Shown here: piece by piece, positions 4,309 to 37,541 of the stretch
Layout: every line of letters begins with the position of its first letter
Position numbering within the stretch: the stretch's first letter is position 1
Assembly (NCBI GenBank): GCA_900317125.1
Contig: ONFR01000006.1
Span: 1-64,000, forward strand
Source of the DNA: an uncultured Bacteroidales bacterium
GTDB taxonomy: Bacteria > Bacteroidota > Bacteroidia > Bacteroidales > P3
Reading direction: 5' to 3'
Length of the DNA: 64,000 bases
Program-made: the position numbers and the translations under genes
The notes under the pieces: model-generated
Database searches by the model: none
What the model was told of the DNA's origin: nothing
The model's input: the letters and a program-made list of their open reading frames with translations, nothing else

Positions 4309-5472
4309 ATGAAGAAAATACTACTTGCTGCCGCAATATTGCTGATGTCCTGCCACTTGTGGGCACAGACAGGAAATGATACCACCGCCACCCAGAAGCC
4401 CACCGGTCCAAACTACGAACAAATACAGGAGGTGCTGAATGGGAAGTCGGGCAAACGGATTTTTTCCAAACTTGTGAAACGGCTGAAAGACGCCGACACT
4501 ACATTGCAATTGGCCGACATCCAAATGCTTTATTACGGACAAATCTACATGGACAACTACACGCCCGGCGGCCAATTCCCCGAGTTTGATGAAATCAACA
4601 CGATCCTGTCGCAGAAAAAAGTGTACAGCTTGTCGGAGGCAAAAAAGATTGTTTCGCTGTCCAACCAAGTGATAGACCGATGTCCCTGCGAACCCATGGG
4701 CTACTATTACAAATACCTTGGGCAGGACATTCTGTGCCAGCACTATGGCGGTGACACCAATCTGAGGAACAAAACCCAGTTGCAATACCAGATGCTGTTC
4801 TATGCCATCCTGTCGTCGGGCAATGGGATGTACCCCCGCACAGCCGTGCATGTGGTCAGCCTGGCGCACGAAAACATACTGCTGAACACTTACGACCTGA
4901 AACGTCAGTCGAACTCTTTCAGGATTATCGACGGACACAACTACGACATTGTGGCTTTGGACCGGAACAAGTTCCGGGTGAACTCCATGTTCTTCAACAT
5001 CGACCCCATTCTAGCTTGGGATAAAATGGTCAAAAATAATGCCCCGCAATCCAATAAGGACATCAAAAAGGTGACTTCGGCAGAGATAGACTTGGGTACG
5101 CGCTTCGTTATAGAGCTGGTGAAGACCAAAAAGTCCGAGAGCACCTTCAAGCTCCTCAGCTGTGAGAAGATACAAGACACACTGACCCTTCAGGGCAATA
5201 TGCTCTATAATGAGCCTGTGCCTTATGGCAGAATCGTGGGATACTTCTGCAAAACCCGCCCCACCCTGGGCAGCAAAGAAGTACACACCAGCCTGATTCT
5301 GAACGCCAACTACACTGAGGAGGAGCTATTCTTCGACAGCGAAATACACATCTGGGGCATTCCCGGCTATCACGCCACACCCAACAATGGTCTCTCCAAC
5401 AACTGGCAGAGCCTTGAATGGAACGACGAAATCGCCACCATCCGGATAAGCAATATCCGAACCCAGAAATAA
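4309..5472 (+). CDS. DUF4919-like secreted protein
   Basis: A 387-residue exported protein: signal peptide MKKILLAAAILL... cleaved near the AQT at residues 18-20. ATG at 4309 is preferred to the TTG three bases earlier. Residues about 30-200 match the DUF4919 pattern (PNYEQI near the mature N-terminus, then a TL-LAD--MLYYGQ-Y---Y motif, and a G(Y/W)YYKYLGQ segment), a Bacteroidota family of unknown function thought to be periplasmic. The C-terminal 130 residues are beta-rich and contain no motif I know. Family membership is inferred from motif resemblance only. The gene is followed by the small PspC-domain gene after 52 bp. Confidence 0.7.
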   Translation: MKKILLAAAILLMSCHLWAQTGNDTTATQKPTGPNYEQIQEVLNGKSGKRIFSKLVKRLKDADTTLQLADIQMLYYGQIYMDNYTPGGQFPEFDEINTILSQKKVYSLSEAKKIVSLSNQVIDRCPCEPMGYYYKYLGQDILCQHYGGDTNLRNKTQLQYQMLFYAILSSGNGMYPRTAVHVVSLAHENILLNTYDLKRQSNSFRIIDGHNYDIVALDRNKFRVNSMFFNIDPILAWDKMVKNNAPQSNKDIKKVTSAEIDLGTRFVIELVKTKKSESTFKLLSCEKIQDTLTLQGNMLYNEPVPYGRIVGYFCKTRPTLGSKEVHTSLILNANYTEEELFFDSEIHIWGIPGYHATPNNGLSNNWQSLEWNDEIATIRISNIRTQK

Positions 5473-5524
5473 CAGTTAGCCTATACAAATCAATAAACAA
5501 TATAAACAATAAAGTAGACATATT

Positions 5525-5731
5525 ATGGAAGACAATGTTCGCAAACTTACTCGCAGCACCACCGAACGCCGCATTGCCGGTGTTTGCGGAGGAATAGCAA
5601 AATACCTGAATGTCGATGTCACCGTGGTCAGAATTCTATTTCTGATTGCCTTGCTGTGCGGAAGCCTTGGTTTCTGGGCATACCTCATCGTGTGGATTGC
5701 CGCCCCCGAGGACAACCGTCTGCACCAATAA
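5525..5731 (+). CDS. PspC domain protein
   Basis: A 68-residue protein consisting of a single PspC domain: an N-terminal basic stretch with the conserved RRIAGVCGGIAKYL-type segment, then one transmembrane helix (about residues 35-60) ending in the family's WIAAPED. PspC domains occur in the phage-shock response of proteobacteria; free-standing short versions are common in Bacteroidota, where they are thought to be small inner-membrane proteins tied to envelope stress. It stands alone between the DUF4919-like gene and a convergent flavodoxin operon. Confidence 0.9.
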   Translation: MEDNVRKLTRSTTERRIAGVCGGIAKYLNVDVTVVRILFLIALLCGSLGFWAYLIVWIAAPEDNRLHQ

Positions 5732-5913
5732 CAGCCATCCCGCCCAAACGCCATCGGGGTTCCTCCTATGGATTGGGGCAGGAGTATTGCATCACGCCGC
5801 CAACCAAAGTTGCCTTTCGCGGCCTACTTTCGGATGGCATTAGCTTTCAATCCCTGCATCCCATGTATACTCACACCCCGTCGTTCTGAGCTTTCGGCAA
5901 ACAGGAACAACCA

Positions 5914-5952
5914 AAAGGCCGGAGTCGCAACACCAATGCGTCTCCGGCCTTT
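5914..5952. terminator. Bidirectional terminator between convergent genes
   Basis: AAAGGCCGGAG at 5914-5924 pairs perfectly with CTCCGGCCTTT at 5942-5952. The stem is flanked by A on the left and T on the right (CTTTCTTAT), so it can end transcription from both the PspC side and the flavodoxin operon arriving from the right. Confidence 0.8.
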
Positions 5953-5997
5953 CTTATCAGTCCGCCACCCGGCAGACCGCAGGAACTATGTCCCAGC

Positions 5998-6540
5998 CTA
6001 TCTGTTCATCAGTCGGCTCTCACCCCACGAGTACTGGGGATAAGCCTTCTTGAGGTCGGCGGCAGAGCCGTTCACATTACTTCCGCCGCTGGTGGCGAAC
6101 ACACAGAGCGTCTTGCCAGCCAAGTCGTGAGCCTCGATGAAAGTATTGATAATTGTGGGAGCAGTGTACCACCACACGGGGAATCCAATCCACACAGTGT
6201 CGTAGTCGGCCATTTTGTCGCAGGTGGCGGCAATGGCGGGACGGGAACTCTTGTCCTTCATCTCCACCGAGGAACGCGACTGCTTATTGGTCCAGTCGAG
6301 GTCGGCCGAAGTGTAAGGCTGAGCGGGAACAATTTCAAAAAGGTCGGCATTCTTCTCTTTAGCCAGACGCTCGGCCGCGGCCTTGGTGGTACCTGTTGCC
6401 GAGAAATAAGCTACAAGTGTTTTCTTCATTTTCGAGGTCTCCTTATTCGATGAATTACTGTTACTTTGATTATTTTGGGCGCAAGCCGACATACCGAATA
6501 GCAGCGCGGCGGCACACAGGAACGTTGTGAAATGTTTCAT
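5998..6540 (-). CDS. Flavodoxin, exported lipoprotein form
   Basis: A 180-residue flavodoxin with a lipoprotein signal peptide (lipobox GMSAC, Cys20) and a Ser/Asn-rich linker before the fold. The FMN phosphate loop is AYFSATGTTKAAAERLA, and the chain shows the later loops of the Flavodoxin_4 type (WIGFPVWWYTAPTIINTF and FATSGGSNVNGS). Exported flavodoxins of this kind are common in Bacteroidales beside hydrolases, aldo/keto reductases and carboxymuconolactone decarboxylases; their physiological partners are not established. The gene starts 3 bp after the hydrolase gene upstream and is surely co-transcribed with it. Confidence 0.92.
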   Translation of the reverse strand: MKHFTTFLCAAALLFGMSACAQNNQSNSNSSNKETSKMKKTLVAYFSATGTTKAAAERLAKEKNADLFEIVPAQPYTSADLDWTNKQSRSSVEMKDKSSRPAIAATCDKMADYDTVWIGFPVWWYTAPTIINTFIEAHDLAGKTLCVFATSGGSNVNGSAADLKKAYPQYSWGESRLMNR

Positions 6541-6543
6541 GGT

Positions 6544-7641
6544 TTATTTAAGATTTGAACGGAAAAACTCTTCTATCTTGTCGTAGGGGATAACACCTGC
6601 CACATCATCATAAAGGTCCACGTGTGTAGCTCCTGGAATAATCATTATCTCCTTGTTCCCCACCACAGTACTCTTGCCTTGAGGGTTCACGCCAGTCATC
6701 TTCTCGAAAGCATATTCGCTGAAATAGCGGCTGTGCGCCTTCTCGCCGTGCACCAGCAACACCGGAGTCTCTATCTCTGCGGCCCAGGCCAACAGCGGCT
6801 GGTTCATGAACGACTGTGTGCCAATCAGATTCCAGCCGTCGGTGCTGTTGCCGCTACGCTCGTGATAGCCACGGGGACACTTATAATAAGCATGATAGTC
6901 CTTTACAAACCACGGAGCGTCGTCCGGCAGTGGGTCTACCACCCCACCCTGACGGCCATAATCGCCCGTGCGGGCAATCTCGGTGCGGGCCTTGGCCAAA
7001 GCCTTACGCTGCTCCTGACGGGCAGCGGCATTGTCCGTACTTCCAAAATAGCCCTCCGAAGCTATCTTGCTCATATCGTACATCGTACTGGCAACGGTGG
7101 CCTTGATGCGAGGGTCGAGAGCGGCAGCGTTCACCGCCATACCGCCGAAACCGCAAATGCCAATGATGCCAATCCGCTCGGGGTCCACATTGTCCTGCAC
7201 ACTCAGAAAATCAACTGCGGCAAGAAAATCCTCGGTGTTGATGTCGGGGCTGGCAGTGCGGCGGGGTTCTCCGCCACTCTCGCCCGTATACGAAGGATCG
7301 AAAGCCAATGCCACGAAACCGCGCTCGGCCATGTGCTGGGCATACAGGCCCGACGACTGCTCCTTCACGGCACCGAAAGGTCCGCTCACTGCAATGGCCG
7401 CCAACTTACCCTCATACTTCTTAGGCGTGTACATGTCGGCCGCCAGTGTGATGCCGTAGCGGTTGCGGAACGTCACCTTGCGGTGATCCACCATGTTGCT
7501 CTGTGGGAAAACCTTGTCCCACTCCTGTGTCAATTGCTGTTCCATATTATTCTGTTTTTTATCTATTTCCTTGTTGCAACAACCCGTTGCCATAGCAGCC
7601 ACAACAGCCACTAATAAAATATTTTTCAACACTTTATCCAT
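6544..7641 (-). CDS. Alpha/beta hydrolase, dienelactone-hydrolase-like lipoprotein
   Basis: A 365-residue alpha/beta hydrolase. The nucleophile elbow is IGICGFGGMA, that is a Cys rather than Ser nucleophile, as in dienelactone hydrolases; the C-terminal histidine is in PGATHVDLYD. An N-terminal lipobox (MATGCC) predicts anchoring to a membrane. Related Bacteroidota proteins are annotated as alpha/beta hydrolases of unknown substrate. It is the first gene of a two-gene operon with the downstream flavodoxin and has a good promoter at 7669-7698. The pairing with a flavodoxin suggests handling of small reactive organic compounds, but this is inference. Confidence 0.9.
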   Translation of the reverse strand: MDKVLKNILLVAVVAAMATGCCNKEIDKKQNNMEQQLTQEWDKVFPQSNMVDHRKVTFRNRYGITLAADMYTPKKYEGKLAAIAVSGPFGAVKEQSSGLYAQHMAERGFVALAFDPSYTGESGGEPRRTASPDINTEDFLAAVDFLSVQDNVDPERIGIIGICGFGGMAVNAAALDPRIKATVASTMYDMSKIASEGYFGSTDNAAARQEQRKALAKARTEIARTGDYGRQGGVVDPLPDDAPWFVKDYHAYYKCPRGYHERSGNSTDGWNLIGTQSFMNQPLLAWAAEIETPVLLVHGEKAHSRYFSEYAFEKMTGVNPQGKSTVVGNKEIMIIPGATHVDLYDDVAGVIPYDKIEEFFRSNLK

Positions 7642-7668
7642 ACTAAAAAAATACCATTATTTAAACTG

Positions 7669-7698
7669 CAAAGATAACAAAAATCCGCAAAACACAAA
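7669..7698 (-). promoter_or_regulatory. Bacteroidota-type promoter for the hydrolase-flavodoxin operon
   Basis: On the minus strand, TTTG (complement of 7695-7698), 18 bp, then TATCTTTG (complement of 7669-7676). The -7 element lies 28 bp upstream of the hydrolase ATG. Match to the consensus of the phylum is close. Confidence 0.75.
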
Positions 7699-7775
7699 CT
7701 CCAGTCCATATTATTAAGAAAAAAATAACGAATCTACTATACGTCCACCCCTCATCGAGTGTCAATTTTTATTTG

Positions 7776-7783
7776 TATCTTTG
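7776..7783 (+). promoter_or_regulatory. Probable -7 element upstream of the YdeI-like gene
   Basis: TATCTTTG followed by C at 7776-7783, the common Bacteroidota -7 box. No clear TTTG is found 19 bp upstream. It lies 138 bp before the chosen ATG of the next gene, so it would give a long leader, or the real start codon may be further upstream. Confidence 0.55.
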
Positions 7784-7920
7784 CACATTGGCAACAGTCC
7801 CATCCCGCCCCATCTAATGGCACATATCTCACTAAATGCCAACACACAAACCGCAAACATCTGCCTCACACAAACCCCGCCACGCTGCCGCCACACCTTA
7901 CTAACAAAACAATAATCCAC

Positions 7921-8526
7921 ATGAACCCCACACCCGAAATACAAAATACCCCCACCACCGACCGCCACAACATATTGGGCACAACCAACCGCAGCCAGTT
8001 CCGCCAATGGCTTTCAGCCAACCATGCCAGCCAGCCGGAATGTTGGGTGGTAGTGAAACGCGGCCGCCCCACCGACGACAAACACTTCTGGTATCTCGAC
8101 GCGGTGGAAGAGGCCCTTTGTTTCGGATGGATTGACAGCGTGTCCACACTTGTGAACGGCGTTCGCATGCAACGTTTCACACCCCGCAAGAAACAAAGCC
8201 CCTGGACCGAGCTGAACAAAGAGCGGGTCCGCCGGCTGGAAAGGCTGGGGCTGATGACCGATGCCGGCCGGAAGGTGCTGCCGCCCATGGGACCTCGCAG
8301 CTTCAAAGTCGACCCCGACATCGAAGCCGCCATGAAAAAGCACCATGTATGGTCGCGTTTCCGCCAATTCCCGCCTCTCTACCAACGCATCCGCGCCTAC
8401 AATGTGGCCTTTTTCAAACACCGTGACCCCGACACCTATACCTCCATGCTCGAGCATCTCATTGAAGCAACCCGTCACGGCCACCTCTACGGCGAGTGGA
8501 ATGACTATGGCCGTCTGTTGCAGTAA
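7921..8526 (+). CDS. YdeI/OmpD-associated family protein
   Basis: A 201-residue soluble protein. Conserved blocks of the YdeI (bacteriocin-protection, OmpD-associated) family are visible: FRQWLSANHA near residue 27, WYLDAVEEALCFGWIDS near residue 58, and RFTPRKKQSPWTELN near residue 85. The molecular function is not established; E. coli YdeI was linked to peptide resistance. The in-frame region before 7921 is proline- and threonine-rich low-complexity and unlikely to be coding, so the ATG at 7921 was chosen. Stands alone. Confidence 0.85.
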   Translation: MNPTPEIQNTPTTDRHNILGTTNRSQFRQWLSANHASQPECWVVVKRGRPTDDKHFWYLDAVEEALCFGWIDSVSTLVNGVRMQRFTPRKKQSPWTELNKERVRRLERLGLMTDAGRKVLPPMGPRSFKVDPDIEAAMKKHHVWSRFRQFPPLYQRIRAYNVAFFKHRDPDTYTSMLEHLIEATRHGHLYGEWNDYGRLLQ

Positions 8527-8902
8527 CCCCCTCCTCCCTTCCCGCTTCGCTTACTCTTCACCCCTAAGTAAGATTCTCATAAGCTCTTATTCACCCTGAC
8601 GGTAGCGAACAACTTTCTAAGTCATTTTTTAATAGTTGTGGGTTAACGAATTGACAATTGAAGCGGTTGGCAGGTCAAAGGGAGTGAGAACGGACGGGTG
8701 TTGGAAATGGAATTAATCCGGAGCTACGAAAAATGGATGTGCATTGGGGTTGGATATATTTATAGAAATAACGGCATTATGACAGGAAAGGATGACAACA
8801 ATAATGGTGTTTTTGGCTAGAAATGAGCAAAATGAAAGATTGTGGGGATATTTTTTGAGGAGGGAAGAAACATACAAAATATACTGATTGAATTTTTATT
8901 GT
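8527..8902. other. Intergenic region without recognisable gene
   Basis: AT-rich spacer between the YdeI-like gene and the promoter of the cyclophilin-like operon. I see no coding pattern, hairpin or RNA gene here. Confidence 0.6.
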
Positions 8903-8910
8903 TATCTTTG
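8903..8910 (+). promoter_or_regulatory. -7 promoter element for the cyclophilin-like operon
   Basis: TATCTTTG then C at 8903-8910 in an AT-rich context. A TTG at 8888-8890 is too close to be a standard -33 element. The element lies 285 bp before the first recognisable gene, and the leader between them contains a 33-bp tandem repeat array. Confidence 0.6.
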
Positions 8911-9015
8911 CAGGCAGAAACTGGATATAAACGCGGATTGCTACAATTTGAAAACAACCCGGTTATGAAGAGAGGCGTTGGGGCGGGAGAAACAACCAAG
9001 GGCATATACCATTGG

Positions 9016-9180
9016 GAAGCGACCCCATATACTGGCAGATACAATTTGGAAACGAACCCAAATAAGGGCAGATACACGGGGGCAACTAAACCACATACGG
9101 GCAGATACATTGGGGGAACTAAACCACATACGGGCATTTACATTTGGGAAACAAAACTATATACAAACAGAAACATTTTA
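9016..9180 (+). repeat. Five tandem 33-bp repeats in the leader of the cyclophilin-like gene
   Basis: Units at 9016, 9049, 9082, 9115 and 9148, each exactly 33 bp. Shared core: GAAACnAAnCCACATACnGGCAGATACATT. Units 3 and 4 are nearly identical; the outer ones are more diverged, and weaker traces appear further left to about 8950. The reading frame 8965-9198 stays open through all units (11-residue periodicity, core KPHTGRY-) and its stop overlaps the ATG of the next gene as ATGA. Whether this is translated is unknown: it could be a repeat peptide, a leader peptide or non-coding. Confidence 0.85.
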
Positions 9181-9194
9181 GAAACAAGTCGATT

Positions 9195-9629
9195 ATGAAC
9201 AAATACACTCTTCTCCTTTTTGCTACACTGGCATGCACCGCCTGCGGGAAAGAAAACAACCCGCCGGCCGACCCGAGTGTGAAAAACATTGTGTTGACAG
9301 TGTCGGGCACAACGTTCGTGGCCACACTGGGCAACACCAAGGCCGCACAGGAATTTGCCGCCATGCTGCCCCTCTCGCTCAATATGCAGGAGCTGAACGG
9401 TAACGAAAAATACTGCAACCTGAGCCAAAAGCTCACCACCGACAGCCAAAAGCCGGGCACCATCCATGCTGGCGACATTATGTTGTATGGACGGGACTGT
9501 ATTGTAGTGTTCTACGAAACGTTTCAAACCAGCTACAGCTACACCCCCATCGGACATATCACCGACCCCGCCCGGCTGAAAGAGACGCTCGGTACAGGAA
9601 ATATAACCATAAAATTCACAGCCCAATGA
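9195..9629 (+). CDS. Cyclophilin-like fold lipoprotein
   Basis: A 144-residue lipoprotein (lipobox TACG near residue 14). The mature part matches the cyclophilin-like family often found in Bacteroidota: a strand with VSGTTFVATLGNT, then AAQEFAAMLPLSLNMQEL, and a late GDIMLYG-DCIVVFYE segment. These proteins have the cyclophilin barrel but usually lack prolyl isomerase residues; role unknown. The ATG at 9195 was chosen because it directly opens the lipoprotein signal. The stop overlaps the start of the acetyltransferase gene by 4 bp (ATGA), so the two are translationally coupled. Confidence 0.85.
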   Translation: MNKYTLLLFATLACTACGKENNPPADPSVKNIVLTVSGTTFVATLGNTKAAQEFAAMLPLSLNMQELNGNEKYCNLSQKLTTDSQKPGTIHAGDIMLYGRDCIVVFYETFQTSYSYTPIGHITDPARLKETLGTGNITIKFTAQ

Positions 9630-10165
9630 CAACAAAACCCACAGGAAAAGACTATGTAGGCAGCGACGACATGTATGCCGAAGTGCAGCGCACCATGCGC
9701 CTGGTTGCCGAAATGAACACCGGATACCACACCGAGGCCGAAGTGCGCCAATACCTGAGTGAAATAACTGTAAGCGAGGTGCCCGACACCGTACGGGTCT
9801 TCACTCCGTTCAACATAAACTATGGCCGCACCACACGATTCGGGAACGACAGTTTTGTGAACTTCGGCTGTACCTTTCTGGCACTGGGCGGCATCACCAT
9901 AGAGGACGGGGTGTTTATAGGTCCCCACTGTGTGCTGGCCACGGAGTATCATCCCGAAAACCCCGCAACCCGCCATTCGCTGCTCACCAAACCCATCGTG
10001 ATAAAGCGCAATGCGTGGCTTGGGGCGGATGTGAAAGTGCTGGCCGGAGTAACCATTGGCGAAAATGCCATAGTGGCCGCCGGCAGTGTGGTGACCAAGG
10101 ACGTGCCGGACAACATGGTGGTGGCCGGCAGCCCCGCTCGCATCGTCAGACCCATCCACGAATAA
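9626..10165 (+). CDS. Sugar O-acetyltransferase, maltose/galactoside acetyltransferase type
   Basis: A 179-residue left-handed beta-helix acyltransferase. Features are the N-terminal mac-like region (TGKDYVGSDDMYAEVQR), the hexapeptide repeats from about residue 70 on (for example GGITIEDGVFIGPHCVLA, and GADVKVLAGVTIGENAIVAAGSVV), and the catalytic His in the segment ATEYHPENPATR. It would transfer acetyl from acetyl-CoA to a sugar hydroxyl in the cytoplasm. Coupled by a 4-bp overlap to the upstream cyclophilin-like lipoprotein gene, a pairing seen in other Bacteroidales. Confidence 0.92.
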   Translation: MTTKPTGKDYVGSDDMYAEVQRTMRLVAEMNTGYHTEAEVRQYLSEITVSEVPDTVRVFTPFNINYGRTTRFGNDSFVNFGCTFLALGGITIEDGVFIGPHCVLATEYHPENPATRHSLLTKPIVIKRNAWLGADVKVLAGVTIGENAIVAAGSVVTKDVPDNMVVAGSPARIVRPIHE

Positions 10166-10322
10166 TGCCCACCCTCGTCTGCCCCAGTTTCGGGCGAACG
10201 GAGCTGTTATTACAGTCCTTTCCATCCCCACCACAGAGGCCAGACTCACAGCATCGGCGGCAAAACAGAATAAGACACAACAACAATAACATCCTTATTT
10301 AAACAAAAAACATAAAAGTAAT

Positions 10323-10979
10323 ATGCTTAAAGCATTATTTATCAACGGAAGTCCCCGAAAGCAATGGAACACGGCGCAACTGCTGCAGAAAGCCCTGGAG
10401 GGAGCACGCGATGGCGGAGCCGAAACCGAGATGGTGCACCTTTACGACCGGGGCATAAACTACAAGGGATGCATGAGCTGTTTTGCCTGCAAGGTGAAAG
10501 GTGGGAGGAAAGGCGTGTGTTTGTTCAAGGACGACCTACAACCCATCATGGAGAAGGCTGTGGAGGCCGATGTGCTGGTGTGCGGCTCGCCTGTGTACTG
10601 CGGCTATCCCACGGCAGGGCTCCGTGCTTTTATGGAGCGGTTGATATTCCCGGGAGTGAACTATGCCGACTTCCGACACCCCGTGGTGCTGAAACCCAAA
10701 CACTCCGCCACCATTTTCACCATGAACTGTCCCAACGAAGCCGTCTACCAGGCCAACGCCTACGACATACTGATGGACACCAACGCAAAACAGCTGGGCA
10801 TGTTCGGCCCGACGAAAATCATGTACTCGTTCGACACGTTGCAATTCAACGATTATAGCCGATATGACGCCGAAGGAATTAACGGCGACCACAAAAAGCA
10901 ATGGCACGACACCCATTTTGCCGACGACCTGAACCAAGCGTACAACTTGGGCAAACGGCTGGTGGAAGAGTGCCGGTAG
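10323..10979 (+). CDS. Flavodoxin family / NADPH-dependent FMN reductase-like protein
   Basis: A 218-residue cytoplasmic protein. The N-terminal FMN loop is NGSPRKQWNTAQLL; residues about 51-67 carry the GCMSCFACKVKGG-KGVC cysteine pattern found in iron-sulfur flavoprotein-like reductases, followed by VCGSPVYCGYPTAGLRAFMERL. Members bind FMN and catalyse NAD(P)H-dependent reductions or act as electron carriers; some of the cysteines may bind Fe-S, though the spacing is not proof. Stands in a run with another such gene and an acyl-ACP thioesterase in the same direction. Confidence 0.88.
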   Translation: MLKALFINGSPRKQWNTAQLLQKALEGARDGGAETEMVHLYDRGINYKGCMSCFACKVKGGRKGVCLFKDDLQPIMEKAVEADVLVCGSPVYCGYPTAGLRAFMERLIFPGVNYADFRHPVVLKPKHSATIFTMNCPNEAVYQANAYDILMDTNAKQLGMFGPTKIMYSFDTLQFNDYSRYDAEGINGDHKKQWHDTHFADDLNQAYNLGKRLVEECR

Positions 10980-30451: not shown

Positions 30452-32398
30452 ATGCATCACAGATATTTACTCATAACGTTGCTCCTGATGCTGCCCTTCT
30501 GGGCAAAAGGGCAGAACTATCAGCCCTGTAGTACATCAATTGTTGTGGCCGATACCGTGGTGCTGGAAGACTCGGTGCGTTTTCATCTGCTCCCTTTCGA
30601 CGATGTGGACAGTGTGCTATGGGCTCCTGATTCCCTCTTCGCCAATCCCCGTGCCGTCGAGCAATGGATTACCCTGCCCTTTGATTCTTCGGTCCAAGTA
30701 TATCTCACTGCCTATTTCCAGTCGGCCAACCTGTTCCGATGGCGTAAGCCAGGCTATGTGCGTTTCTGTACAGGCTATAATTATATCGAATCGCCGGCCG
30801 ATGGCGACCTTTGCCAGCCACGCAGCATCAGCATGGCTTCCGACCCTTCGGTGCTCTGTCCCGACTTGCCGTCCAACAATTACGGAAACAATATCATTAT
30901 CAGTACTGATACGCTCCGTGTCTATGGCGACTCGTTGCCTGCTTTCTACAATTTCGACTCCGCACAGGGCTCAATCTTGCCATTTATTACCGACCATTTG
31001 CGGCGAATTCCCAACGATAGTGCCTATGTACCTTTCTATGTGGATACTGTCGATATGTGGGATCCCTCCCGCAGCCACACCCATATTCTCAACATGAATC
31101 ACTTCCGCCTCGTCTATGGCAACGAACCTCAGGCAGCGTTGCCCACCATTTTCTTCACAGTGCATATTGACGACACTGCGCATCATTTCTTCCGCGAGGG
31201 CTGTAATATTCCTTTGTGCGACACCACCCTCTTCTATTATGGCTCAATCGAATTTCCCCGTCCAGGAATTCCTCCGTCCCAGAGCCTCGACGCAGCCTAC
31301 TATTTCAACATGGTGCCCCGACCCCACGGCAGGGCTATTTTCCGTTTCTACGAAACACCCACCAACTATTACAATACGCTCTCTTCCATCCAGATCAACC
31401 GCATCGAAATGCAGGGCTTCTGCCATCCTACCGACAGCCTTATGCTCATCGCTCCGCATCCGGGCTGCCTGGTGCGCGACACTCTGTATTGTGCCGTCTG
31501 CCCCAGCCAATTACCATACACTTGGTTCGGCCACACTTTCGACTCGGATGCTTTCGATTCCATTACTGTTACCACCTCTCTCTGCGACTCGGTCCACTAT
31601 CTCAGTCTTTCAGTACACTTCGACGATACTCTTGCTCTCTACGATACCGTGGTGCAGAATGCCTTGCCGTGGACCGCCTACGGCCACACTTTCGACAGCA
31701 CCGGTCGCTACGAGCTGCTCCTTTCCGGCACATGGCCAGACTGTGACACACTGCTTTACTATAACCTCACCGTCATCGACAATGTCTTCGACACGACACT
31801 CACCTATATCTGTCCGGGTCAGTTGCCCTATACGCTCCACGGCGTGACGGTCAACACCGACACCGTTTTCAACATCACCCTGCAGGGCAGCCAAGGGCAG
31901 GACAGCACCGTCACCTATTTCGTCTACGTCAAGGCCGACAGCGACACCGCCATATTCGATACCATTGTCGAAAACCAGCTCCCTTGGGCGTTCCTCGACA
32001 GCCTCTTCACCGACACCGTCAGCAACATGCCCTTCCACTTCGTCAACGAGGCAGGCTGCGACAGCATCGTTTACTACAACCTCCATATCTTCTGGAACGG
32101 TGACCATTGCGACAGCTCTCTCACTTTCCCCAATGTGGTCACTTCCAACGGCGACGGCCTCAACGACCGCTTTGTCATCGGCGGACTGGTGGAGAACCAG
32201 TGCTATCCCGACAACATGCTCGTCATCGCCGACCGCACAGGCCGCATTGTCTTCCAAGCCGAGAACATCTGCCGCGACGACCAGTTCTGGGACCCTGCCG
32301 CCTCGCGCATCCCCGCCGGCACCTACTTCTACCGCTTCGTAGGCCGCGGCGTCAATCATGCAACCCAACATCAAGGATGTATAGAAATACTGAAATGA
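30452..32398 (+). CDS. Type IX secreted surface protein (type B C-terminal domain)
   Basis: A 648-residue exported protein with signal peptide (MHHRYLLITLLLMLPFWAKGQ). Much of it is Asp/Ser/Thr-rich beta structure with repeated segments of a PYTWFGHTFDS or PWTAYGHTFDS type followed by LCDSVHYLSL or DCDTLLYYNL (about residues 350-560), an imperfect repeat of roughly 55-60 residues. The last 90 residues are a gliding-motility-associated type B sorting domain: FPNVVTSNGDGLNDRFVIGG, then MLVIADRTGRIVF, and IPAGTYFYRFVGRG. This targets it through the type IX system to the cell surface or outside. Its stop overlaps the start of the Card1-type gene by 4 bp. Confidence 0.88.
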   Translation: MHHRYLLITLLLMLPFWAKGQNYQPCSTSIVVADTVVLEDSVRFHLLPFDDVDSVLWAPDSLFANPRAVEQWITLPFDSSVQVYLTAYFQSANLFRWRKPGYVRFCTGYNYIESPADGDLCQPRSISMASDPSVLCPDLPSNNYGNNIIISTDTLRVYGDSLPAFYNFDSAQGSILPFITDHLRRIPNDSAYVPFYVDTVDMWDPSRSHTHILNMNHFRLVYGNEPQAALPTIFFTVHIDDTAHHFFREGCNIPLCDTTLFYYGSIEFPRPGIPPSQSLDAAYYFNMVPRPHGRAIFRFYETPTNYYNTLSSIQINRIEMQGFCHPTDSLMLIAPHPGCLVRDTLYCAVCPSQLPYTWFGHTFDSDAFDSITVTTSLCDSVHYLSLSVHFDDTLALYDTVVQNALPWTAYGHTFDSTGRYELLLSGTWPDCDTLLYYNLTVIDNVFDTTLTYICPGQLPYTLHGVTVNTDTVFNITLQGSQGQDSTVTYFVYVKADSDTAIFDTIVENQLPWAFLDSLFTDTVSNMPFHFVNEAGCDSIVYYNLHIFWNGDHCDSSLTFPNVVTSNGDGLNDRFVIGGLVENQCYPDNMLVIADRTGRIVFQAENICRDDQFWDPAASRIPAGTYFYRFVGRGVNHATQHQGCIEILK

Positions 32399-33564
32399 AA
32401 ACACTTGTCAACATCTTCGACCCCGACGAGCCTTTGGCCGCCTACCTCTTCCTCAAGCAGTATTATGCCGAGGGCGACCGCCTGCTCTTTATCGCCACCC
32501 GCGAGAACCGCCAGCTCCTTGGTCGCTACGCCGCCCTCTTCAACCTCCCCGACGACCAGATCGACTTCATCGCCTTCAAGCGCGCCGAGGACAGCTATAT
32601 CTACGAGCGTATCAGCCGCCGCCTTTCCTCGCGGCTCTCGGCCGATGTCACCTACTGGGTCAACCTGGCCGGCGGCACCCGTTATCTGGCCCTCGCCGTC
32701 CAGCATGTCTTCACCCAGTTCAATGCCCGTCTCTTCTACGTCCAGACACGCGAGAATCTCATCGTCAACTCCCCGTTCGACTCCACCTTCGACGACAGTC
32801 CCGACACCATCGACCCCATCCGCTACCGCATGACCCTCGACGAGTATTTCCGTCTCCACGGCCTCGGCCACGACCTCAAGGAGCGCAGCCACCGTCCCAC
32901 ACGCAGCGAGGAGGATGCCCTGCGCGTCTTCGACTGCTTCCGCACCCGTCGGCTGCCCCACAGGGCTTTCCACGCCCTCGAGCAGCTCCGCCTTATCTAC
33001 CGCGGCATGCGCAAACCCATGGCCATCCACGACATCACCTTCGGCCGTCGCGACCGCCGCGACGCCGTCCCCGGCCTCCCCGAGCTGCTCAACGCCATCG
33101 GCTTTGTACCCAAAGAGAAGGAGATGCTCCAGCCCGCCGAAGTCGACTACCTCACCGGCGGCTGGTTCGAGGAGTATGTCTACTACACCCTCCAGCGCCT
33201 CGTCGCCCCGCAGCAGATAGCCATCGGCGTGCGTATCGCACGGCCCGGCACCCAGCACAACAACGAGCTCGACGTGGTCTTTATCAAGGCCAACACCCTC
33301 TTCGTCGTCGAGTGCAAGACCGGTGTGGCCTCCGACCACATGTTCAACGAGATTGTCTACAAGGCCAGTGCCCTCAAGGAGTCGTTCCTCGGCCCCTCCA
33401 GCCACTCATACATCTTCACCCTCAAGAACGACTACGACCACCGTCTGCAGACGGTGGCCGCCATCATGGGCATCACCCTGTGCCCCAAAGGCACCCTTGT
33501 CAGTCCCGACCTCATGGGCCGGGTGGCGGAGCAGATGCGCCGCATAAGCAACGAACTAGATTGA
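32395..33564 (+). CDS. Card1/DUF1887-type CARF plus PD-(D/E)xK nuclease
   Basis: A 389-residue cytoplasmic protein. Residues 1-140 are a CARF domain; the ligand-site segment N90-L-A-G-G-T-R-Y matches the N-x-TGGTK type of DUF1887. Residues about 165-245 are a linker or winged-helix region. Residues about 250-389 are a restriction-endonuclease fold: GGWFEEYVYYTL with E259/E260, then E291-L-D293, and E306-C-K308, the full PD-(D/E)xK set. Card1/Can2 proteins cut single-stranded DNA or RNA and sometimes double-stranded DNA when cyclic oligoadenylate made by Cas10 is bound. No Cas10, other cas gene or CRISPR array lies in this window. The ATG at 32395 overlaps the stop of the type IX secreted gene (ATGA), so translation is probably coupled. 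Confidence 0.88.
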   Translation: MKTLVNIFDPDEPLAAYLFLKQYYAEGDRLLFIATRENRQLLGRYAALFNLPDDQIDFIAFKRAEDSYIYERISRRLSSRLSADVTYWVNLAGGTRYLALAVQHVFTQFNARLFYVQTRENLIVNSPFDSTFDDSPDTIDPIRYRMTLDEYFRLHGLGHDLKERSHRPTRSEEDALRVFDCFRTRRLPHRAFHALEQLRLIYRGMRKPMAIHDITFGRRDRRDAVPGLPELLNAIGFVPKEKEMLQPAEVDYLTGGWFEEYVYYTLQRLVAPQQIAIGVRIARPGTQHNNELDVVFIKANTLFVVECKTGVASDHMFNEIVYKASALKESFLGPSSHSYIFTLKNDYDHRLQTVAAIMGITLCPKGTLVSPDLMGRVAEQMRRISNELD

Positions 33565-33565
33565 T

Positions 33566-33650
33566 TCACCTTTCACTTTTCACCTTTCACTTTTCACTTT
33601 TCACATTAAATCTCAATTCTCAATTCTAAATTCTCAATTCAATTAGTCAG
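33566..33650. repeat. Simple-sequence repeats (TTTCACTTTTCACC and TCTCAATT)
   Basis: At about 33566-33606 repeats of TTTCAC(C/T)TTTCAC; at 33611-33643 repeats of (T)CTCAATT. The second motif recurs as a clean heptamer array at 41231-41283. Located between two convergent genes. Confidence 0.8.
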
Positions 33651-34134
33651 TCCATCCCGTGACTTTGCAGCCGGCATACCGCTCCTCCATCTCCACAAAC
33701 CAGTCCTGTGCGGTGCTGTTTGCCAGCAGCGGTTCCAGACGGGGGTCTTCGTCCACCCGCTCCCGGCAGCGGTCGATGAGGTAGCGGTAGCGCGACAGAT
33801 TGGGGTGGTAGTAGTTGATTTCGGGACCAAGGACAATCTCGTCCCAGTCGATTAGCTGTACGGCGGCCAGCATCAGCTCAAGCATGCTCTCCACATGCAG
33901 CCCCACGCCCCAGAGCCTGTCGCTGTACTCCTCCCGCAGCATGCTCTCGCCGCGCATCACCGCCGGCCTGTCCGACGCCCATTCATAGCCCTCCGCCACC
34001 CGACGGCGATACTGCTGTTGCTGCCTGACGAAATCCGCTTTCAGCTCCCGCGTCTGCTCCCGCCGCAGATGGGTCTCCTCGCCGTTGCTCCATGCCATCA
34101 ACGTACCATTGCTTTTGATTCTTTTTCTTCTCAT
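33643..34134 (-). CDS. Hypothetical cytoplasmic protein
   Basis: A 163-residue soluble basic/acidic mixed protein, mostly helical (RREQTRELKADFVRQQQQYRRRVAEGYEW near residues 24-52; VESMLELMLAAVQLI near 82-96; YRYLIDRCRERVDED near 117-131). The N-terminus MRRKRIKSNGTLMAWSNGEE suggests a small DNA- or protein-binding region but no motif is proven. A probable promoter lies at 34323-34330. Convergent with the Card1-type gene; function unknown. Confidence 0.6.
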   Translation of the reverse strand: MRRKRIKSNGTLMAWSNGEETHLRREQTRELKADFVRQQQQYRRRVAEGYEWASDRPAVMRGESMLREEYSDRLWGVGLHVESMLELMLAAVQLIDWDEIVLGPEINYYHPNLSRYRYLIDRCRERVDEDPRLEPLLANSTAQDWFVEMEERYAGCKVTGWTD

Positions 34135-34805: not shown

Positions 34806-37541
34806 CTATGCATCAGTCTTATTTGCCTTCCGAATGTGCTCCAATAGCTCTTCCGCATCCTTCACATCCTTGTTGAAAGCAGCATGGCTCTTCTCCGCCA
34901 TGATGCGGTACTTCTCCAGACTCTCCAGTGCCGCAGCCTCCGCAGCGGGGTATTCTTTCCTGGCAAGGTACTGCAATGCAAGGTTATGGAGGTCCCCAGC
35001 AACGTATGGTATGTAGGCATCGGGGTTCTTGTCTGCCAATTGACGATGGATGGCCAAGGCCTCATTAAGTATTTTTAGAGCATTGTCAAGATGGTTGGTT
35101 TGCCAGTAATGCCCTGCCAAGTTGTTCAACGCCATGGCCACATTGGGCTGGTAGGCATCGGGGTTCTGGTCTGCCAGTTGGCGGTAAGTGGTCAAGGCCT
35201 CGTTGTATTCCTCTTCGGCTTTGCCCAGTTGGTTGGTGTCGCTGTGGAGGTTAGCCAAGTTGTTCAGTGTCGTGGCTACGTATGGCAGGTAGGCATCGGG
35301 GATCTTGTCTGCCAGTTGGCGGCGGATGGTCAAGGCCTCGTTGTATTCCTCTTCGGCCTCCTTGTATTGATTGGTGCTATAGTGGAGGACGGCCAAGTTG
35401 TTCAGTGTCGTGGCTACGTATGGCAGATAGGCATCGGAGTTTTGTGCTGCCAGTTGGCGGTAAGTGGCCAAGGCCTCGTTGTATTCCTCTTCGGCCTTGT
35501 CCAGTTGGTTGGTGTCACTGTGGAGGTTGGCCAAGTTGTTCAGCGTTGTGGCTACGTATGGTAGGTAGGCATCGGGGTTCTTTGCTGCCAGTTGGCGGCT
35601 GATGGTCAAGGCCTTGTTGTATTCCTCTTCGGCTTTGTCCAGTTTGTTGGTGTCTCTGTGGAGGTTGGCCAAGTTGTTCAGCGTTATGGCTAAATCAGGT
35701 AAGTATGAATTGTCTTCTTCTGCTAAAACATAATATTTATTATAGGATTCTTTGTATTTGGATTCTGCAAATAATAGATCTTTATCATCGTTGCTTTTTG
35801 AATAAATAGAAGCTAATTTGTTTAGTGAAGATGCAATCTGTGGTAAATATGAGCCGGGATTCGATTCATTGTATTTTCTATATATACCTATTGATTCTGT
35901 ATATTCATCTTCAGCATAAGTGAGTTTCTCAGTTCTTAAATGAAGATTGGCCAAACAGTTCAGTGTTTTGGCCACATTGGGACGGAATTCTTTGGGGTTC
36001 TCGTCGGCTAATTGTCTGTATATGGCCAATGCCTCTGTGTATTCCATCTCTGCCGCTTGGAGATGGTCGGTGACGCTGTGGAGGTTCGCCAAGTTATACA
36101 GCACCATGGCGATGTCGTCTTTGCATGTGTCGTTTTTTTCTTTTTCCAGATGGCGGAATAGCTCCAATGCAAGTTGGTAGTAGCGCTCAGCATCAGAGAA
36201 ATGGTTGATATCATCTAGTGCAACGCCTACACTATTCAAAGAGGAGGCAACAGTGTAAGGGCGGGTATTCTTCAGGTCGGCAAAGGGTGTGTCTTTTTTT
36301 TCAGACCAGGCTTGGAGTGCGTCATCGTAGATCTGCAGGGCGAAGTCCATGCCATAGACTTGTTTTATCTCCTCGGGGTGTTGCAGGAAGCGGTAGGCCA
36401 TGAAATATTCATAAAAAGACTTGTCCGAGAAGTGGAATTCGTTTCCAGTGCGGGTAAGCAAAGAGCGTTGCTGAAAATAGTTTTTAATGCTATCATTGGT
36501 ATTAGGACTCTTACTAATGATATATTGTAACTCTTCCGAAGACAGTGTGTTTTTTTTGTGGGAGTAAAGATATGATGCTACTTCGTATAAAACATTCCAC
36601 CAAGACGTGATATCTTTATTATTTATCTGTTGCGTGATTTTGTTCAGATCACGACGAATACTGTTATTCACTATAGCATCATAAAGGTCAAAGGCTGTGT
36701 TGATATTTCTGTTGGATTCAACAATCTCGCGAATGTAGGTAAGTACCAAAGGACGTGTGGTGATGAAAGGATATTTATGTATGAGTACTTCTGCTTTGTG
36801 TCGTAGCTCATTATCGGAGCGGAAAGAGAATAATTTATCAAGGTATTCTGATATTTGTTCATCATTAAATGGGAGTAAATACAACTTTGTGGTGGGAATA
36901 TTGCTTGTATTGAATTCATCATCTTCGTTTGCAAAGAATTGAGGACGGCAGGTGGTTACAACAAAGGCAAAATCTATATAGGCTTTTTCTAATTGTTGAA
37001 AAAAGGACTTGTATTCTTTGGATTCTTTTGGCTCTTGTGCCATTGGGTTTTCATCAATGGCATCAAGTAGTAGAATACAATTACTCTTTTTCTCAATTTT
37101 TTCAATGGTTTGAAAGGCTTCTTTTTGACGTAGGGAAACAAAATGTATATCGTATGGAGGATTATTTCGGGTGCGTTTTTTTATATAATCATAGTATAAA
37201 TGTACGAGTGCAGCGGTTTTTCCAGTACCAGTGTCCCCTAGTATACAAAATACTCGTGGCTCTTCTGTGTTTTTGATGAATTCTTGTTTGATGAAATAAT
37301 CTCGCAAGAGTTGTGGCTTTCCTGCTTGAGAGAATGAGTGTTTTGAAATAAATGGCTGAATGTATATATTGTATTTGTCATTATAGTCATTAAAATCAAA
37401 ATCATCGTGAATGTTGTCTATATATTTCTTCCGATATTTGATATTGTCTATATAATTCAATATTAGTATGCAAATATATGCAATTCCTGCGAGGAATAGC
37501 AATAATACAAGAGCTAAAAGAAAATGAGATAAGATATTCAT
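34806..37541 (-). CDS. Membrane-anchored NACHT (STAND) NTPase with TPR-like sensor repeats
   Basis: A 911-residue protein. Residues about 7-29 form one transmembrane helix. Residues about 95-390 are a NACHT-type NTPase: Walker A G102-D-T-G-T-G-K108-T109, Walker B LLLDAIDE with D160 and D163-E164, the arginine-bearing TTCRP (196-200), and the C-terminal winged-helix signature FHFSDKSFYEYFMAYRFL (369-386). Residues about 425-890 are TPR repeats of the kinesin-light-chain/TPR_10-12 type, with a period of exactly 46 residues (Tyr at 613, 659, 705, 751, 797, 843). STAND NTPases oligomerise when the repeat half senses a ligand; bacterial ones (Avs and NLR-like proteins) act in phage defence. No effector domain is fused; the upstream 4-TM gene ends 3 nt before, and the membrane helix could join them. 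AT-rich compared with neighbours. Confidence 0.9.
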   Translation of the reverse strand: MNILSHFLLALVLLLFLAGIAYICILILNYIDNIKYRKKYIDNIHDDFDFNDYNDKYNIYIQPFISKHSFSQAGKPQLLRDYFIKQEFIKNTEEPRVFCILGDTGTGKTAALVHLYYDYIKKRTRNNPPYDIHFVSLRQKEAFQTIEKIEKKSNCILLLDAIDENPMAQEPKESKEYKSFFQQLEKAYIDFAFVVTTCRPQFFANEDDEFNTSNIPTTKLYLLPFNDEQISEYLDKLFSFRSDNELRHKAEVLIHKYPFITTRPLVLTYIREIVESNRNINTAFDLYDAIVNNSIRRDLNKITQQINNKDITSWWNVLYEVASYLYSHKKNTLSSEELQYIISKSPNTNDSIKNYFQQRSLLTRTGNEFHFSDKSFYEYFMAYRFLQHPEEIKQVYGMDFALQIYDDALQAWSEKKDTPFADLKNTRPYTVASSLNSVGVALDDINHFSDAERYYQLALELFRHLEKEKNDTCKDDIAMVLYNLANLHSVTDHLQAAEMEYTEALAIYRQLADENPKEFRPNVAKTLNCLANLHLRTEKLTYAEDEYTESIGIYRKYNESNPGSYLPQIASSLNKLASIYSKSNDDKDLLFAESKYKESYNKYYVLAEEDNSYLPDLAITLNNLANLHRDTNKLDKAEEEYNKALTISRQLAAKNPDAYLPYVATTLNNLANLHSDTNQLDKAEEEYNEALATYRQLAAQNSDAYLPYVATTLNNLAVLHYSTNQYKEAEEEYNEALTIRRQLADKIPDAYLPYVATTLNNLANLHSDTNQLGKAEEEYNEALTTYRQLADQNPDAYQPNVAMALNNLAGHYWQTNHLDNALKILNEALAIHRQLADKNPDAYIPYVAGDLHNLALQYLARKEYPAAEAAALESLEKYRIMAEKSHAAFNKDVKDAEELLEHIRKANKTDA
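35005..35705 (-). repeat. Tandem 138-bp repeats within the NACHT-TPR gene
   Basis: About five consecutive 138-bp units encode the 46-residue TPR units; those around 35140-35650 share long identical blocks (for example GCCAAGTTGTTCAG and GTTGTATTCCTCTTCGG recurring at 138-bp spacing). Copy number could change by recombination. Confidence 0.85.

What the first reader, a model, noticed from the sequence alone, without database searches (positions are those of the whole stretch)
32395..33564. Orphan Card1-type CARF nuclease without CRISPR
The CARF segment N90-L-A-G-G-T-R and the nuclease residues E260, D293, E306-x-K308 are intact, so the protein should bind a cyclic oligoadenylate-like signal and cut nucleic acid. 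No cas10, other cas gene or repeat array is present in the 64 kb. Either a type III locus lies elsewhere on the genome, or the CARF domain serves another signalling source, such as a CBASS-like cyclase.
Basis: partly seen in the sequence, partly recalled or inferred. Interest (0 to 1): 0.7.

Follow-up and report, generated by a model that had tools for sequence, protein, structure and literature searches.

The report
Lineage-conserved Card1-like nuclease outside CRISPR
This gene encodes a signal-activated nuclease descended from a CRISPR accessory enzyme, but in a group of gut and rumen bacteria it is kept as an ordinary chromosomal gene, mostly in species with no such CRISPR system and with an altered signal-binding pocket, so it probably answers to a signal nobody has identified.

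Summary
Window 32395-33564 (+) encodes a 389-aa Card1/Can2-family protein (CARF plus PD-(D/E)xK nuclease) with an intact catalytic set; the window has no cas gene or CRISPR array. The genome does carry a type III-A locus elsewhere (cas6, cas10 with GGDD, csm2-5, array), but with its own Card1 (36% identical) and a Csx20-like gene. The window gene is therefore a second, unlinked paralogue. It belongs to a single-origin clade (75 sequences, branch support 100) nested among type III-linked Bacteroidales Card1. About 65 of 74 genomes carrying it have no detectable cas10. It sits at fixed places beside core genes, is near-fixed (16/19) in the window's clade, and is under strong purifying selection. 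The nuclease residues never vary, while CARF pocket positions switched in concert (S6 to N, S9 to D, T92 to A, K96 to R). Two of these match VC1899, the known orphan that cA4 does not activate. mCpol is absent and CD-NTases nearly absent in the genus. Best reading: a type III effector domesticated into a CRISPR-independent nuclease with an altered, unidentified trigger. Residual type III service in trans is not excluded. Orphan DUF1887 proteins are known in principle; this clade and its pocket switch appear undescribed in the papers I could read.

The parts
32395..33564 (+). Orphan Card1/Can2-like protein: CARF (about 1-146) and PD-(D/E)xK nuclease (about 247-345); 389 aa
32410..32430 (+). CARF beta-1 and loop (residues 6-12, NIFDPDE): N6 and D9 where type III-linked homologues have S6 and S9; one residue longer loop
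32662..32682 (+). CARF motif N90-LAGGT-R96: A92 and R96 where linked homologues have T and K
33169..33321 (+). Nuclease motif residues E259, D293, E306-C-K308-T309, invariant in orphan and linked forms
30452..32398 (+). Upstream 648-aa protein with CHU_C type IX secretion domain; its stop overlaps the Card1 start (ATGA). Same overlap pattern in 15 loci of the clade, window included
33643..34134 (-). Convergent downstream 163-aa protein of unknown family, conserved in 12 of the compared loci

Best explanation
A Card1/Can2-type CARF-nuclease that left a type III CRISPR locus once in the ancestry of certain gut and rumen Bacteroidales and became a stably inherited, unlinked chromosomal gene. By homology with Card1/Can2 it should be a homodimer in which a ligand at the CARF dimer interface switches on the metal-dependent PD-(D/E)xK domains to cut nucleic acid, slowing growth or phage replication. 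Shown by computation: family and fold, single origin, conserved location beside core genes, retention under purifying selection without Cas10, invariant nuclease residues, concerted changes in the CARF pocket. Inferred: that the trigger is no longer canonical cA4, that it comes from a non-CRISPR source encoded elsewhere (no partner gene is shared between the different neighbourhoods), and that the outcome is defence or stress dormancy.
For: 75 orphan sequences form one branch (SH-aLRT 100), nested among 12 type III-linked ones. cas10 is absent from 28 of 35 orphan-bearing genomes of the window's family, 16 of them at least 90% complete and at most 5% contaminated, and from 38 of 40 genomes reached through the other loci (one genome is in both sets). 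Synteny: downstream of a CHU_C gene in the window's genus; between pgk, a secreted protein and an LD-carboxypeptidase gene in another lineage. rpoB tree: present in 16/19 of the window's clade while type III is in 6/19. dN/dS 0.03-0.15, including pairs in Cas10-less genomes. Fixed orphan/linked differences N6/S, A92/T, R96/K and D9/S (68/75 against 12/12); 9 of 10 discriminating sites lie in the CARF. SthCan2 contacts cA4 through S19, T42, K99 and Y118; orphan VC1899 has D9 and R96 at the S19 and K99 positions and is not activated by cA4 (PMC7969007). No phage or plasmid homologue.
Against: The window's own genome makes a Cas10 with an intact GGDD motif, so cyclic oligoadenylate may reach this protein. 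Within the genus, cas10 is commoner among orphan bearers (7/32 against 1/88, p 0.0004). Y115 and T35, equivalents of two Can2 cA4 contacts, are kept in the window protein, and Lys to Arg is conservative. No ligand, activity or phenotype was measured. One relative (G109) lacks the gene with the flanking genes intact, so it is dispensable there.
Confidence: 0.6

Rival explanations
1. It is a trans-acting type III effector: it still answers to cyclic oligoadenylate from whatever type III system a strain carries, perhaps a different ring size from the locus's own Card1, and persists in Cas10-less strains because such systems come and go.
For: Own genome has type III-A with cyclase-competent Cas10. 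cas10 is enriched in orphan-bearing genomes of the genus, 7/32 against 1/88, p 0.0004. A Can2-family member can bind cA3, cA4 and cA6 (PMC12825302).
Against: The enrichment is not supported once shared ancestry is taken into account: the independent-pairs test on rpoB gives at most 2 informative pairs, and within the window's clade it is 6/16 against 0/3, p 0.52; both tests have little power. The type III loci of G121, G022 and G015 have effectors of their own. Low dN/dS between pairs without cas10.
Confidence: 0.22
2. It is activated by a cyclic nucleotide of another immune cyclase, such as a CBASS CD-NTase or mCpol.
For: CARF and CBASS ligand pools overlap in principle; the pocket differs from linked Card1.
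Against: SMODS CD-NTase in 4 of 120 genus genomes and not in this one; mCpol model hits only Cas10 itself.
Confidence: 0.07
3. The CARF domain has lost ligand control and the protein is a structural or constitutively weak nuclease, or a decaying relic.
For: VC1899 shows weak cA4-independent RNase activity (PMC7969007); one related copy (G348) has an in-frame stop.
Against: Several pocket positions and all catalytic residues are almost invariant in 75 sequences; CARF dN/dS 0-0.16.
Confidence: 0.11

Closest known systems
TsuCard1 / SthCan2 (type III CRISPR ancillary nucleases, CARF4 clade)
   Same: Same two-domain architecture, fold and catalytic residues
   Different: Not linked to cas genes, mostly in Cas10-less genomes, cA4-phosphate contacts S19 and K99 (Can2 numbering) replaced by D and R
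VC1899 of Vibrio cholerae (PDB 1XMX), orphan DUF1887 protein
   Same: Orphan CARF-nuclease; Asp and Arg at the same two pocket positions; second-best fold match
   Different: Very distant in sequence; has neither the Thr (D34) nor the Tyr (V115) that the window protein retains; our clade arises within linked Bacteroidales Card1
The genome's own type III-A-linked Card1 (contig C2, L006:11214-12305)
   Same: 36% identity, same domains
   Different: In the cas operon next to a Csx20-like gene; has the S6, S9, T92 and K96 type pocket

Membership tests
Card1/Can2 (PF09002, CARF4 PD-(D/E)xK) | N-terminal CARF of the Card1 type | tested here: met
   PF23400 30.6 bits over cut-off 24.6
Card1/Can2 (PF09002, CARF4 PD-(D/E)xK) | C-terminal PD-(D/E)xK nuclease with E, D, E-x-K | tested here: met
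   PF09002 61 bits; E259, D293, E306, K308 invariant; fold match 6xl1, TM 0.75
Card1/Can2 (PF09002, CARF4 PD-(D/E)xK) | cA4-contact residues Ser, Thr, Lys, Tyr (typical of cA4-activated members, not of the whole Pfam family, which includes VC1899) | tested here: not met
   D9, T35, R96, Y115: two of four replaced
Card1/Can2 (PF09002, CARF4 PD-(D/E)xK) | Activation by cA4 | not testable with these tools
   needs purified protein
Type III CRISPR ancillary effector | Encoded in a type III locus | tested here: not met
   cas genes only on contig C2; 75-member clade unlinked
Type III CRISPR ancillary effector | Co-occurs with cas10 across genomes | tested here: not met
   about 65 of 74 bearers without cas10; enrichment within genus not supported independently of ancestry
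CBASS effector | CD-NTase in the same genome | tested here: not met
   No SMODS hit in own genome

The most novel reading that the evidence does not exclude
The orphan clade has re-tuned its CARF domain to a non-CRISPR nucleotide signal made by core metabolism or released on damage (for example c-di-AMP or RNA fragments), giving a CRISPR-independent signal-gated nuclease pathway fixed in gut Bacteroidales lineages.
Probability: 0.35. Interest if true: 0.8.

Novelty: new variant of a known kind. Interest (0 to 1): 0.52.

Why it matters
What activates CARF nucleases that live outside CRISPR has been open since VC1899. A vertically inherited clade with a fixed pocket switch, intact nuclease and many Cas10-less hosts turns that into a defined experiment with a built-in control: a linked and an orphan Card1 in one genome.

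Tried and rejected
NCBIfam has no model for the protein. A shared partner gene was sought in the neighbourhoods: none is common to all orphan contexts. CBASS and mCpol as signal source: disfavoured. Mobile origin: no phage or plasmid match. The genus-level cas10 enrichment was first taken as evidence of a functional link, then checked on an rpoB tree, where independent pairs give no support. The place of VC1899 in the tree is unreliable (long branch), so shared D9/R96 is noted as a parallel, not as kinship.

Full report
Observation. The ORF at 32395-33564 (+) is real: 389 aa, ATG start, PF09002 and PF23400 both over their cut-offs, and best solved relatives Card1, Can2 and VC1899 by sequence and by fold. 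There is no array in the window.

The rest of the genome. Contig C2 carries cas6, a Cas10/Csm1 with GGDD, csm2, csm3, csm4 and csm5, a Card1 of its own, a Csx20-like gene and a CRISPR array running to the contig end. So the 'no CRISPR' part of the title is wrong at genome level, but the window gene is a separate paralogue, 36% identical to the linked one.

A clade, not an accident. Among 190 genomes of the GTDB family, 42 have a PF09002 protein and only 15 have Cas10. A scan of 84,980 species genomes gave further relatives, all top hits being Bacteroidales, mostly from rumen and gut and including Candidatus Colimorpha and Limimorpha. The 75 distinct unlinked sequences form one branch with support 100, and the 12 type III-linked Bacteroidales sequences lie outside it. 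An even sample of the order shows orphan-level scores in only three families.

Independence from type III. Cas10 is missing from 28 of 35 bearers in the window's family (16 of those 28 are at least 90% complete and at most 5% contaminated) and from 38 of 40 others; one genome is counted in both sets, giving about 65 of 74. The completeness of the 40 is not told, and a cas10 in an unassembled part of a draft genome would be missed. RAMP proteins in the genus occur in exactly seven genomes, all bearers, and one non-bearer (G116) has a III-D-like locus. That is an enrichment (7/32 against 1/88, p 0.0004), but on an rpoB tree the bearers are concentrated in particular clades: 16 of 19 genomes of the window's clade carry the gene, 6 of 19 carry type III, and independent pairs give no support for coupling, though with few informative pairs. 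The closest relative, G052, has a 98%-identical copy and no Cas10. The type III loci of G121, G022 and G015 have effectors of their own.

Location and selection. In the window's genus the gene follows a CHU_C type IX secretion protein, with an ATGA overlap in 15 loci. In a second lineage it lies between pgk plus a secreted protein and an LD-carboxypeptidase gene (these gene names are my reading of the sequences). In a third group it is beside uvrA and sometimes a ribonucleotide reductase gene (likewise). No neighbour is shared by all, so it probably acts alone or answers to a signal made elsewhere (inference). dN/dS is 0.03-0.15, including pairs in Cas10-less genomes.

Pocket. Orphan and linked forms differ completely or nearly so at N6/S, D9/S, A92/T and R96/K and at a few loop positions; 9 of 10 discriminating sites are in the CARF and six fall in the 28 positions that I took, from the Can2 contacts, as the pocket surroundings (that set was drawn up after seeing the alignment, so its p value is only indicative). 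Nuclease residues do not differ. In SthCan2 the residues aligned with 9 and 96 (S19, K99) hold phosphates of cA4; VC1899 has D9 and R96 there and is not activated by cA4 (PMC7969007). T35 and Y115, matching the other two contacts, are kept in the window protein, so loss of cA4 binding is likely but not certain.

Known before. Unlinked CARF genes in every family, including PF09002, were noted in 2014 (PMC4012209), and VC1899 was called an orphan in 2021. I found no description of this Bacteroidales clade or its pocket switch in the papers available, which exclude several key subscription articles. I therefore file it as a new variant of a known kind.

Noticed in passing
L162 (G116:C34) 6232-10550: Cas10d/III-D-like locus with Csx20, Cas5_IIId-like and Csx19 genes but no PF03787 RAMP hit in the genome; it may be a divergent or partial III-D system.
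   Followed up: partly
window 34806-37541 (-): 911-aa NACHT/STAND NTPase with TPR repeats (five 138-nt direct repeats), next to a 151-aa ORF without a family match; possible defence or signalling gene near the Card1 gene.
   Followed up: no
L158 (G015:C36) 5226-7440: Type III-B-like locus with CorA and DHH hydrolase genes, the SAM-AMP signalling type, in a relative that also carries the orphan Card1.
   Followed up: no
L006 2657-3694: Tandem array of about ten 82-nt units upstream of the type III-A locus.
   Followed up: no
G348:C7:50242-51393: Orphan-clade copy with one in-frame TAA in another family, possibly a decaying gene or an assembly error.
   Followed up: no
L075 5187-7291: Two adjacent Card1-like genes in one type III locus.
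   Followed up: no
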